A stretch of 64,000 bases of DNA from Sulfolobus acidocaldarius SUSAZ (lineage in GTDB: Archaea > Thermoproteota > Thermoprotei_A > Sulfolobales > Sulfolobaceae), in NCBI GenBank assembly GCA_000508305.1, contig CP006977.1, positions 124,001 through 188,000 on the forward strand, written 5' to 3'. Shown one piece after another: positions 2,391 through 20,080 of the stretch; positions within the stretch are counted from its first letter, which is position 1; each line of letters opens with the position of its first letter. The notes under the pieces were generated by a model. It searched no databases. It was not told where the DNA came from and saw only the letters and a list, made by a program, of their open reading frames with translations. The position numbers were made by a program, and so were the translations under genes.

Positions 2391-3303
2391 TGTTTACGAG
2401 AGGTGGAAAGAGTTTTATGAAGACGCAATTTCTCGTGATATACCAGGCATTAAAACCGCTGAAAAAATAGCTTATTTTGGGATTGGTGGAAGTGGAATAC
2501 CAGGTGAAGTCTTAAAACTGCTAGACTTACCTGTGGAGTATAAGCTGTTTAGGAGTTATAAGGTAAAGGTTGATTCAAATACTACAGTTGTGGCTGTAAG
2601 TTACTCTGGAAACACTGCAGAGACACTTGCTGGGGTAAAGAGGGCTCAAGAATTAGGTGTAAAGGAGATAATAGTCATTACCTCTGGAGGTAAACTAAAG
2701 GAGATAGCTGAAAGTAAAGGATATCCTTTATTAAGCTTACCCCAAGGCTATCAGACAAGATTTATTTTTCCGTATATTTTCACATATCTTGTTAGAATCC
2801 TTAACCAGAGTACAGGATCTAGCTATAGAGTACAAGATTTAGTTGAAGGAGTACAAGACAATTTCACCATGTTGTCAGAGGTAAGTATACGAATAGCCAA
2901 TAGAATCACTGGAAAGGTTCCTATATTTTATGCCTCAGATTTACTCCCTATTGCTGAAAGATTTAAACAGGAAGTAAATGAGAATGCTAAGTATCCAGCC
3001 TTTTTCTCTGAGTTACCTGAGGCTAACCATAACGAGATAGAACTTTACTCGTCACGACAGGGAAATCAGTTTATACCAATTGTTATTCCCTCTGATAAGG
3101 TAGATGAGGCTACAGCTTCTCTGATAAATGCAGAGTTAATTTATCCACCTTATCAGGTTATACTTAAAAACATATCCAGCATGTTTCTAATTGCAGGACT
3201 AGCTTCAGTGAAGTTAGCTTCTCAATTGAATATAAAAGCAGAAGAGTTAAGGATAATACCTAAAATAAGAGAAATGACATTCAATTTACTTATGGGTGGT
3301 TAA
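2383..3303 (+). CDS. Bifunctional phosphoglucose/phosphomannose isomerase
   Basis: SIS-domain isomerase of 306 residues, the usual size of crenarchaeal PGI/PMI enzymes that interconvert fructose 6-phosphate with glucose 6-phosphate or mannose 6-phosphate. Visible marks are the GIGGSGIPG loop (33-41), the sugar-phosphate-binding SYSGNT segment (73-78), and the [19 protein letters not shown] catalytic region near residue 210, with the conserved Glu and His of the PGI/PMI family. The GTG start overlaps the preceding gene. cysS begins 2 nt after its stop, so all three genes probably share one transcript. Confidence 0.9.
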
Positions 3304-3305
3304 TC

Positions 3306-4715
3306 TTGAATCCTCTGAGGCTTTACAACACTCTGGGTAGAAGAATAGAGACTTTTGAATCATTTGATCCATTAACGGTAAAAATGTATGTTTGTGGTCC
3401 TACGGTTTATGACTATGTTCATATAGGTCATGGTAGAGCATTTGTGGGTTTCGATGGTATAGTGAGATACCTTAAGCTGAGGGGCTTTAACGTAATAAGA
3501 GTTCAAAACATTACCGATATAGACGATAAAATAATTAAAAGAGCCAATGAGACAGGCAAGGATTGGAGAGAGATAGTAGATTATTACACAAAGGACTACA
3601 TGGAGTCGCTTAAAGCTTTGAAGGTAGAAATAGATCAACATCCTAGAGTAACCAGTCATATCCAGGAAATAATTGATTTTGTTCAAAAATTAGTAGATAA
3701 AGGTCATGCTTACACAACTTCTAGTGGGAGTGTCTACTTTGATGTGGATTCCTTCCCTAGTTATGGGTTATTATCAGGGAGTAAAAAAGAGGAGTGGAAT
3801 CAGGGAGAAGAAATAGTTAAGGAGAAGAAAAATCCCTATGATTTTGCTCTATGGAAGGCATGGAAGCCCGGAGAGCCCTATTGGGAATCACCATGGGGTA
3901 AGGGTAGACCAGGCTGGCATATTGAATGCTCCACAATGTCAACTAGATATCTCGGTGAGCAGTTTGATATCCACGGTGGAGGTGTGGATCTAGTCTTTCC
4001 TCACCATGAGAATGAAAGGGCACAGAGTGAGGCTCTATTAGGTAAGACATGGGTTAAATACTGGGTTCATGTAGCCTATCTCACAATAAACAAGGAGAAG
4101 ATGAGTAAGTCGCTTGGAAATATAATACCTTTGAATGAGGCACTAAAGAAATGGGGTCCCAGCGTTTTAAGGTTCTGGTACCTGTCTACCAAATATAGAA
4201 ATTCCATAGACTATAGTGAGCAAACCTTAGAGCAGGCTAGATCATCTCTTCAGAGACTCAAAGACGCAATGGGTATAATAAGGAGTGTAATTAAAGAAGA
4301 GCCTAAAAGTCACTCTAATGAAGAGGAAATAAGCACACAGAGAGAAATAATCAGTCTAATCGGTAAGTTTCATGAGGCGATGAGTAACGATTTTGATACT
4401 GCTACTGCTCTTTCAAATATATATGAAATTGCCAACCTAGTTTTCACAAAGATCCAATACACTAGGGATTTCATGGGTGCAATGTTAGCTTTTGGCGCAT
4501 TTAGACAATTTAACTATGTCTTTGGGGTTATGGACGAGGAGTTTAATCCGAGCTATGAAGTTATGTACAAGGTTATAGATTCAGTTGTCGAAATAAGAAA
4601 TATACTAAGAGCTATGAAGATGTATGATCTAAGCGATGAAATAAGATCTGTTCTAGCTAATGCAGGTATTAAGATTTTAGATGGAAAAGAAAAATCTACT
4701 TGGAGGTTTGAGTGA
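3306..4715 (+). CDS. cysS: Cysteinyl-tRNA synthetase
   Basis: Class I synthetase of 469 residues charging tRNA-Cys. The zinc ligand C30 precedes the HIGH signature (39-42), and the KMSKS loop is present near residue 268 in [10 protein letters not shown]. The ECSTMST and PHHENE segments supply the other zinc ligands. The gene starts with TTG, preceded by GGTGG within the end of the isomerase gene. Its 3' end overlaps the convergent Nudix gene by 20 bp (4696-4715). Confidence 0.95.
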
Positions 4716-11149: not shown

Positions 11150-11205
11150 TATCAGGTTATCGACCCTTCTTCATTGCTCAGCCTATGTCGACGTCATCAT
11201 AATTG
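11150..11205 (-). ncRNA. C/D box guide sRNA
   Basis: Minus-strand RNA with the full archaeal C/D architecture: C box ATGATGA (11194-11200), 12-nt guide, D' CTGA (11178-11181), 3-nt spacer, C' ATGAAGA (11168-11174), 12-nt guide, D CTGA (11152-11155). The two 12-nt guide spacings are those typical of Sulfolobus 2'-O-methylation guides bound by L7Ae, Nop5 and fibrillarin. The guides are CGTCGACATAGG (D') and AGGGTCGATAAC (D). By the D+5 rule each would direct methylation of a U in its target. I could not identify the rRNA or tRNA target by eye. A TATA-like AGTATATTAA near 11243-11252 may be its promoter. Confidence 0.82.
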
Positions 11206-12164: not shown

Positions 12165-13022
12165 ATGGAAGGAGTAGTACCCGCAATTGTCACTCCCTTT
12201 AAGGAAAATGAAGATATTGATTTTGAATCTCTAAATTTATTTTTGAATTTTCTTGGGAGAAATGGAGTTAAGTGGATATTCGCTTTAGGTAGTACTGGAG
12301 AATTTAATATGTTAAGTTTAAGTGAGAAGCAAGAGTTTATAAGAAAACTGAGAGAGATAACAAAACTCAAAATAATAGTCAATGTCTCTGAAAATTCTCT
12401 TAAGAACACACTCTCATTGGGTAAGCTAGCTTTTGATGTGGGCATGGAAGGAATTGCACTCATTCCTCCAATATATCATAAGCCTTCTGAAAGTGGGCTA
12501 ATCAGCTATTTTGAGGAGATGTCGAAATTAGGTCTTCCATTATATGTTTACGCATATCCTGACAAGGTTCCCATAACATATGAGACAATAAGTAAGTTAG
12601 TGAAGCAAGATATTATAGATGGAATTAAGTTGACCACTGATAACTTACCTTTATTCAAGAAATATTTAGGTCTAAAAGAAATTAAGAATGACCTGAAAAT
12701 CCTGATAGGGAGCGATACTTTATTTATATACTCATTAATTGAGGGCGGTAATGGATGCATATCAGCAGTAGCTAACGTCGCCCCGGAGTTAATGATGAGG
12801 GCATATCAGGGAGTAAGAGAAGGTAAGTTAAATGAGAGTTTAGAGATTCAAGAGATGATATCAAAGATAAGTGATGCAATAATGAGTGGAGATTTTCCCT
12901 CAGGTGTAAAGGTAGCCCTGAGGTATAGAGGGGTAAGTGTAGGAAGTGTAAGGAGACCCTTAAAGGAGAGTATTGAGGTGAATGCTCGTATATACTCAGT
13001 TCTGAAAGAGCTCGGAATGTGA
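12165..13022 (+). CDS. DapA/NanA/KdgA-family class I aldolase
   Basis: A 285-residue member of the dihydrodipicolinate synthase / N-acetylneuraminate lyase / 2-keto-3-deoxygluconate aldolase superfamily. The Schiff-base lysine is K155 in DGIKLTTDN, the catalytic tyrosine is Y131 in VYAYPDK, and the pyruvate-carboxylate loop is GSTGE (42-46). Sulfolobales make lysine through aminoadipate, so a true DapA role is unlikely; a sugar-acid or hydroxyacid aldolase is more plausible. It does not resemble the well-known Sulfolobus KdgA closely enough to use that name. The C box of an sRNA begins one base before its TGA stop codon and overlaps it. Confidence 0.8.
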   Translation: MEGVVPAIVTPFKENEDIDFESLNLFLNFLGRNGVKWIFALGSTGEFNMLSLSEKQEFIRKLREITKLKIIVNVSENSLKNTLSLGKLAFDVGMEGIALIPPIYHKPSESGLISYFEEMSKLGLPLYVYAYPDKVPITYETISKLVKQDIIDGIKLTTDNLPLFKKYLGLKEIKNDLKILIGSDTLFIYSLIEGGNGCISAVANVAPELMMRAYQGVREGKLNESLEIQEMISKISDAIMSGDFPSGVKVALRYRGVSVGSVRRPLKESIEVNARIYSVLKELGM

Positions 13023-13074
13023 TGAGGGGTCGATGTTACTGATCAATTGATGAGATTATCTCCGGCTGAGAAGC
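13014..13074 (+). ncRNA. C/D box guide sRNA overlapping the aldolase stop codon
   Basis: Plus-strand RNA with all four boxes in register: C GTGATGA (13019-13025), 13-nt guide, D' CTGA (13039-13042), 4-nt spacer, C' TTGATGA (13047-13053), 12-nt guide, D CTGA (13066-13069). The C box overlaps the TGA stop of the aldolase gene, so the RNA may be processed from, or compete with, that message. The guides are GGGGTCGATGTTA (D') and GATTATCTCCGG (D). The D' guide shares the core GGGTCGAT with the D guide of the sRNA at 11150-11205. The flanking ends are estimated, not seen. Confidence 0.8.
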
Positions 13075-13503
13075 TTACTCCTCATCTAAATGTATTTTCG
13101 TAAACCTCATGTGTCTTTTAATTGCATCTACGACGAAAACTATCCCGCCAATAAGCACTACTATGGCTGAAAATACTTCTAATGCAAGCTCATGGGAGGA
13201 AATGAGAAATATTATGATGAAAAATGAGGTCAGGAAGAAAGAGGCAAAAAACACACTTTTAGGTAAGATATTGTTGAAAAGCAACATGTAATCGTCATCA
13301 AGAATTACTTTTCTAGGCACTATCTTTCCTTCTAATGTTTCCTCAACTAAACCAGCAGCAACAAGTTTTTTCACGTGATATCTCACAGCACTTGTTGAAG
13401 AGAAACCCAGATCCTCTTGTATTTGTCGTATTGTGACACCGTTTTTACTCTTCAGCACATAGTAGTAGACTCTCTTTGTAGGCAATGATAATGAAAGCTC
13501 CAT
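13075..13503 (-). CDS. Membrane-bound winged-helix transcriptional regulator
   Basis: A 142-residue protein: an N-terminal winged helix (about 1-65, with GVTIRQIQEDLGFSSTSAVRYHVKKL as the HTH) and two C-terminal membrane helices (about 82-102 and 108-128), ending in a charged tail. This layout matches the Sulfolobales one-component membrane-tethered regulators of which ArnR and ArnR1 are known examples. The target genes cannot be inferred, because the neighbours are an aldolase and a large NTPase. Its 3' end lies just past the D box of the convergent sRNA. Confidence 0.75.
   Translation of the reverse strand: MELSLSLPTKRVYYYVLKSKNGVTIRQIQEDLGFSSTSAVRYHVKKLVAAGLVEETLEGKIVPRKVILDDDYMLLFNNILPKSVFFASFFLTSFFIIIFLISSHELALEVFSAIVVLIGGIVFVVDAIKRHMRFTKIHLDEE

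Positions 13504-19986: not shown

Positions 19987-20080
<94 letters not shown>

What the first reader, a model, noticed from the sequence alone, without database searches (positions are those of the whole stretch)
13014..13074. C/D box sRNA whose C box overlaps the stop codon of the aldolase gene
C GTGATGA, D' CTGA, C' TTGATGA, D CTGA with 13-nt and 12-nt guides and a 4-nt spacer. The C box covers the TGA of the preceding gene, so transcription and processing of the two must interact. sRNA genes at the ends of protein genes are known in Sulfolobus but still poorly understood.
Basis: partly seen in the sequence, partly recalled or inferred. Interest (0 to 1): 0.6.

Follow-up and report, generated by a model that had tools for sequence, protein, structure and literature searches.

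The report
Ribosome-guide RNA lodged behind aldolase gene
This is a genuine but ordinary archaeal C/D box guide RNA (a small RNA that tells a methylase which ribosomal RNA letters to modify); relatives show that it has travelled at the end of an aldolase gene throughout most of the Sulfolobus family, and that overlapping the gene's stop codon is optional.

Summary
Window 13019-13069 (+) is a canonical C/D box sRNA gene: C GTGATGA, D' CTGA, C' TTGATGA, D CTGA, with 13- and 12-nt guides and a 4-nt spacer. The upstream gene's stop TGA is nt 2-4 of the C box. Chance is excluded (0 expected per 64 kb). The RNA is found in all 31 family genomes searched; in 25 it follows the orthologous aldolase gene.

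The stop-codon overlap is not essential: it occurs in 13 of those 25 and is absent in 12. One genome lost the aldolase and kept the sRNA between the same flanks. In another genus the RNA follows tRNA-Ser.

Best target is 23S domain V, next to the peptidyl transferase centre. The D' guide pairs 12 of 13 with 2608-2620 (predicted A2612). The D guide pairs 10 bp at 2576-2585 with a U-G at the target, but 16S 144-155 is a real alternative. No tRNA target was found.

The arrangement is already described: about a quarter of archaeal C/D sRNA genes overlap an upstream 3' end, half of those with the stop in box C (PMC7994747). Rfam's sR11 label does not track orthology. Verdict: a conserved member of a known kind; low to moderate interest.

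The parts
13019..13069 (+). C/D box sRNA gene, box C to box D (51 nt)
   Evidence: Sequence; pattern statistics; Rfam RF01150 match 13015-13070; conserved in 31/31 family genomes
13019..13025 (+). box C, GTGATGA; contains the stop codon TGA of the upstream gene
   Evidence: ORF end at 13022
13026..13038 (+). D' guide GGGGTCGATGTTA; pairs 12 of 13 with own 23S 2608-2620 (11 contiguous Watson-Crick pairs); predicted methylated nucleotide A2612
   Evidence: 5/300 shuffled guides reach the score; region ranking
13039..13042 (+). box D', CTGA
   Evidence: degenerate in several relatives
13047..13053 (+). box C', TTGATGA
13054..13065 (+). D guide GATTATCTCCGG; pairs with own 23S 2576-2585 (10 bp, U-G at the target nucleotide G2580) or with 16S 144-155 (12 bp with two U-G)
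13066..13069 (+). box D, CTGA
   Evidence: conserved
12165..13022 (+). host gene: DHDPS/aldolase superfamily protein, 285 aa, whose transcript probably carries the sRNA
   Evidence: PF00701, E 2.4e-53; orthologues in 28 of 31 family genomes
13075..13503 (-). convergent gene (winged-helix and membrane protein, 142 aa); its stop lies 6 nt beyond box D, so the sRNA fills the gap between two converging genes
   Evidence: weak HTH_20 match, E 8.8e-6

Best explanation
It is the gene of an archaeal C/D box methylation-guide sRNA that has no firmly identified promoter of its own and rides on the mRNA of the upstream DHDPS-family aldolase gene. Inferred mechanism: RNA polymerase reads through the gene and the sRNA; L7Ae, Nop5 and fibrillarin bind the C/D k-turn and the C'/D' k-loop; nucleases trim the unprotected ends, leaving a 50-60 nt RNA. 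The finished RNP methylates (and probably helps to fold) 23S rRNA domain V beside the peptidyl transferase centre. The D' guide is predicted to place 2'-O-methyl on A2612 (E. coli A2478). The D guide is predicted to act at G2580 (E. coli G2446), weakened here by a U-G pair, or alternatively at 16S rRNA near 148. The stop codon inside box C is a convenient lodging, because TGA is part of the box, and not a regulatory requirement. Shown here: anatomy, non-chance occurrence, conservation, the changing relation to stop codon and host gene, and target complementarity. Inferred: transcription, processing and methylation.
For: Canonical boxes, guide lengths and 4-nt spacer; no chance expectation; Rfam C/D match. 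A model built from 25 relatives finds the RNA in 31/31 family genomes and weaker matches in 59 further genomes of the order and class. It lies at the 3' end of the orthologous gene in 25 of the 28 genomes that have the gene. The overlap is optional, 13 with and 12 without. In G016 the gene is gone but upstream flank, sRNA and downstream flank remain collinear with G012. In G024-G026 it follows tRNA-Ser(TGA). Among all 80-nt stretches of 16S and 23S and their antisense controls, 23S 2576-2655 is best for both guides over nine genera (341 against 258 for the next; mean 194, sd 22.5), and also for the window's own two guides (41 against 36 for an antisense control). No tRNA match beats shuffles. 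Literature: about 25% of archaeal C/D genes overlap an upstream 3' end, about half of these with the stop in box C; in S. acidocaldarius flanking sequence can be changed without affecting maturation (PMC7994747); promoters of neighbours are 'hijacked' (PMC5539422).
Against: No RNA data were available, so expression, ends and methylation are untested. The D guide alone fits 16S 144-155 slightly better than 23S, and its 23S pairing has U-G at the predicted methylation site in this genus. Each guide alone is only moderately significant (5/300 and 6/300 shuffles reach the best score), and the D guide also has a 12-bp match to the antisense strand of 23S. D' boxes are degenerate in several genera. 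A TATA-like TATATA at 12989-12994, about 26 nt upstream, could be a separate promoter, though those codons (Ile-Tyr) also recur in relatives.
Confidence: 0.8

Rival explanations
1. The overlap itself is functional: binding of L7Ae and sRNP assembly on the C box at the stop codon compete with translation termination, so that sRNA production and aldolase expression regulate each other.
For: The stop codon lies in the C box in 13 of 25 relatives, spread over several genera, and the sRNA-gene pairing is kept through most of the family. L7Ae binding to k-turns in mRNAs does regulate translation in S. acidocaldarius (PMC5539422).
Against: 12 of 25 relatives have the C box 0-3 nt after the stop; the gene can be lost and the sRNA kept; other genera carry it behind a tRNA or another sRNA. 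Reporter tests of 3' overlaps found neutral or slightly negative effects (Tripp et al. 2017 in PMC7994747).
Confidence: 0.12
2. The sRNA has its own promoter inside the 3' end of the aldolase gene (TATATA at 12989-12994) and is independent of the aldolase transcript.
For: The spacing (~26 nt) suits an archaeal TATA box, and the element is kept in the genus-mate apart from the base next to it (12995).
Against: The TATA-like codons encode Ile-Tyr, which also recurs in the protein of relatives; only about 20% of archaeal C/D genes show an upstream TATA motif (PMC7994747). In tandem or tRNA-linked copies no such element is needed.
Confidence: 0.2
3. The main methylation target of the D guide is 16S rRNA 144-155, with 23S as a minor or absent target.
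For: 16S CUGGGGAUAAUC pairs along all 12 nt of the window's D guide (two U-G), and position 11 of the guide suits 16S in many family members.
Against: Guide position 2 is G in all 25 aldolase-linked members, giving G-C with 23S but only G-U with 16S. Several members of other families extend the 23S pairing to 10-11 Watson-Crick pairs. The D' guide lands 23 nt downstream in 23S.
Confidence: 0.3
4. Chance assembly of box-like words at a gene end; no RNA.
For: TGATGA and CTGA are short words and TGA is a stop codon.
Against: Expectation 0.0 per 64 kb; conserved in 31 genomes with boxes and guide cores the least variable positions.
Confidence: 0.01

Closest known systems
Archaeal C/D box sRNAs with 3'-ORF overlap (Tripp et al. 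2017, reviewed in PMC7994747)
   Same: Canonical double-guide C/D sRNA; [quoted passage not shown] promoter of a neighbouring gene probably used; tRNA-linked and tandem versions in relatives.
   Different: Nothing essential. Here the same sRNA can be followed through a whole family with overlap present or absent.
Rfam RF01150 (sR11)
   Same: The window and its genus-mate score above the family cut-off, 41.1 and 43.4 against 39 bits.
   Different: Orthologues in other genera do not match sR11 at all, and another locus of the same genome with different guides scores higher (48.2). The label reflects shared boxes and a few letters, not the same guide set.
Eukaryotic snR38 / 25S Gm2815
   Same: If the D guide acts at 23S G2580, that nucleotide corresponds to E. 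coli G2446 and yeast G2815 (numbering from my own knowledge). Gm2815 is the site listed for snR38 (PMC2656528).
   Different: Homology of the guide RNAs is not implied. In this genus the pairing has U-G at the target; in most relatives it is C-G.

Membership tests
Archaeal C/D box sRNA | Box C RUGAUGA and box D CUGA at the ends | tested here: met
   GTGATGA 13019-13025 and CTGA 13066-13069; C conserved in 23/25 and D in 24/25 aldolase-linked relatives
Archaeal C/D box sRNA | Internal C'/D' boxes with a 3-5 nt spacer | tested here: met
   CTGA, 4 nt, TTGATGA in the window; degenerate in several relatives
Archaeal C/D box sRNA | Guides of about 10-13 nt complementary to rRNA or tRNA, ending at D/D' | tested here: met
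   D' 12/13 with 23S 2608-2620; D 10 bp with 23S 2576-2585 or 12 with 16S 144-155; no tRNA match above shuffles
Archaeal C/D box sRNA | Evolutionary conservation as an RNA gene | tested here: met
   31/31 family genomes; invariant positions fall in the boxes and guide cores
Archaeal C/D box sRNA | Expressed 50-60 nt RNA bound by L7Ae, Nop5 and fibrillarin | not testable with these tools
   No RNA data held; S. acidocaldarius RNA-seq lists 61 C/D sRNAs (PMC4644070), but its table could not be read here
Archaeal C/D box sRNA | 2'-O-methylation of the nucleotide paired to the fifth position upstream of D/D' | not testable with these tools
   Predicted 23S A2612 and G2580 only
3'-overlapping C/D sRNA genes (Tripp class) | Stop codon of the upstream ORF inside the sRNA, often in box C | tested here: met
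   TGA 13020-13022 is nt 2-4 of box C
Rfam RF01150 sR11 | Score above the gathering threshold | tested here: met
   41.1 against 39 bits
Rfam RF01150 sR11 | Orthology (the family follows this sRNA in relatives) | tested here: not met
   The orthologous copies in L091, L095, L096, L107 and L112 do not match sR11 at E 0.5, while the non-orthologous L010 scores 48.2

The most novel reading that the evidence does not exclude
The D' guide of this sRNA has switched between two look-alike 23S sites 20 nt apart. In Sulfolobus and its nearer genera it reads CACAUCGACC(CC) (2609-2620, target A2612). In three other genera (g3, g6, g10) it reads CUACAUCGAU (2629-2638, target C2632, equivalent to E. coli C2498, which bacteria methylate with the protein enzyme RlmM; numbering and enzyme from my own knowledge). 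The sRNA would thus be an old assembly and methylation guide of the peptidyl transferase centre that changes its methylation site while keeping its place in the ribosome.
Probability: 0.35. Interest if true: 0.5.

Novelty: new member of a known kind. Interest (0 to 1): 0.3.

Why it matters
It gives a clean comparative test of what a C/D sRNA needs from its host gene: one guide RNA, 25 genomes with the same host, overlap present in about half, host lost in one, host exchanged for a tRNA in another genus. The answer favours lodging for transcription over coupling at the stop codon. It also offers a testable pair of methylation sites beside the peptidyl transferase centre, one possibly retargeted between genera.

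Tried and rejected
A first target search reported a 12-bp match of the D guide to '23S 2310'. It was an artefact: loci on the minus strand are not flipped, so the antisense strand had been scanned; redone correctly. tRNA targets: 46 tRNA genes of the genome scanned, nothing better than shuffled guides. Free RNA fold: no stable structure (z +1.3), as expected for a C/D RNA held by proteins. Bacterial-type promoter and terminator scan: nothing, and not suited to archaea. Three-mismatch pattern search for the D half: uninformative, matches at the level of the reversed control. Rfam label sR11 accepted only as 'C/D-like'. Literature search by guide sequence: no paper.

Full report
OBSERVATION. The sequence at 13019-13069 (+) is exactly as described: C GTGATGA, 13-nt guide, D' CTGA, TCAA, C' TTGATGA, 12-nt guide, D CTGA. 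The ORF 12165-13022 ends in TGA at 13020-13022, inside box C. The convergent gene on the other strand stops at 13075, so the sRNA fills the whole gap between two converging genes. The full pattern occurs once in 64 kb against an expectation of 0.0 (relaxed pattern 0.015). Rfam matches 13015-13070 to sR11 at 41.1 bits, cut-off 39.

HOST GENE. The protein belongs to the DHDPS/aldolase superfamily (PF00701). It falls short of the KD(P)G-aldolase and dapA cut-offs, so 'aldolase' is right at superfamily level only. Closest solved structures are DHDPS-like enzymes, with KDG/KDPG aldolases further down.

CONSERVATION. The window lies in a 2.06-Mb genome; the genus-mate G023 (2,225,959 bp, by size probably S. 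acidocaldarius DSM 639, from my own knowledge) has the same arrangement. Between the two, only 3 of 51 sRNA positions differ: the outermost D' guide base and two spacer bases. Orthologues of the gene were found in 28 of 31 family genomes. In 25 of them a C/D sRNA follows directly, with shared guide cores: TCGATG (TCGATA in g9) after box C, and TAT followed by a C/T-rich run and CCG before box D. A sequence model of the 25 finds the RNA in all 31 family genomes and, more weakly, in 59 more genomes of the order and class.

IS THE OVERLAP IMPORTANT? In 13 of 25 the stop is part of box C; in 12 the C box begins 0-3 nt after a TAA, TAG or TGA stop. G016 has no aldolase hit, yet carries the sRNA between flanks collinear with those of the G012 aldolase locus: L141 4-1351 with L097 120-1470, sRNA 1499-1553 with 2352-2413, and 2243-2893 with 2875-3525. 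The gene was lost and the sRNA stayed. In the three g10 genomes the aldolase lacks it, and the sRNA follows tRNA-Ser(TGA) by about 10 nt. In G004 and G005 it is intergenic; in other families it often follows another C/D-like sRNA. So the RNA is older and more constant than its host. This fits published work: about 25% of archaeal C/D genes overlap an upstream 3' end, almost half of those with the stop in box C; effects of 3' overlap on reporters are neutral to slightly negative; flanks are dispensable for maturation while internal boxes are essential (PMC7994747); neighbours' promoters are 'hijacked' (PMC5539422).

TARGETS. With correctly oriented rRNAs of the same genome (L032, L033 reverse-complemented), D' pairs UCACAUCGACCCC at 23S 2608-2620 (12 of 13) and D pairs CCGGGGAUAA at 2576-2585 (U-G at the fifth position) or CUGGGGAUAAUC at 16S 144-155. 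Single-guide significance is moderate (5/300 and 6/300 shuffles). Taken together the two guides pick out 23S 2576-2655 over every other 80-nt stretch and over antisense controls, for the window alone and for nine genera. By the rule that the nucleotide paired to the fifth base upstream of D or D' is modified, the predicted sites are A2612 and G2580, which by my own numbering knowledge are E. coli A2478 and G2446; the latter equals yeast 25S G2815, whose methylation is assigned to snR38 (PMC2656528). The 16S alternative for the D guide is not excluded. Dennis et al. find methylation hotspots near the peptidyl transferase centre in domain V (PMC4644070). tRNAs give nothing.

GUIDE RETARGETING. 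In g3, g6 and g10 the D' guide matches 23S CUACAUCGAU (2629-2638) instead, with the fifth position opposite C2632 (E. coli C2498); in g1, g2, g7, g8 and g11 it matches CACAUCGACC. rRNA of the other genera was mostly not readable, so the targets were taken from this genome; G030's 23S is identical over the two target sites.

LIMITS. Expression, termini and methylation are untested; supplementary sRNA tables could not be opened, so the S. acidocaldarius copy may already be one of its 61 catalogued sRNAs (PMC4644070). Rfam's sR11 label should not be used as an orthology statement.

Noticed in passing
window 11152-11200 (-): A second C/D box-like element: ATGATGA-CGTCGACATAGG-CTGA-GC-AATGAAG-AAGGGTCGATAAC-CTGA, 29 nt upstream of the uracil-DNA glycosylase start on the same strand. 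All 49 nt are identical in the genus-mate while flanks vary. No convincing rRNA or tRNA target.
   Followed up: partly
L141 (G016, sRNA at C1:1953052-1953105) against L097 (G012): Natural deletion of the aldolase gene that leaves the sRNA in place between the old flanks.
   Followed up: yes
L149, L143, L144 (genus g10): The same sRNA lies about 10 nt behind tRNA-Ser(TGA), a probable tRNA-sRNA dicistron.
   Followed up: yes
L153, L154, L156, L160, L162 (other families of the order): The homologous sRNA is preceded by another C/D-like sRNA whose D guide reads about GGCTCGTGTTCCTGA or GGTCCGTGTTACTGA, suggesting an old tandem pair.
   Followed up: partly
L010 (G000:C1:1119468-1119522): A different C/D sRNA of this genome scores higher for Rfam sR11 than the window copy, so RF01150 appears to mix unrelated guides.
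   Followed up: partly
window 19988-20080 (-): tRNA gene whose anticodon ARAGORN could not place, probably intron-containing.
   Followed up: no
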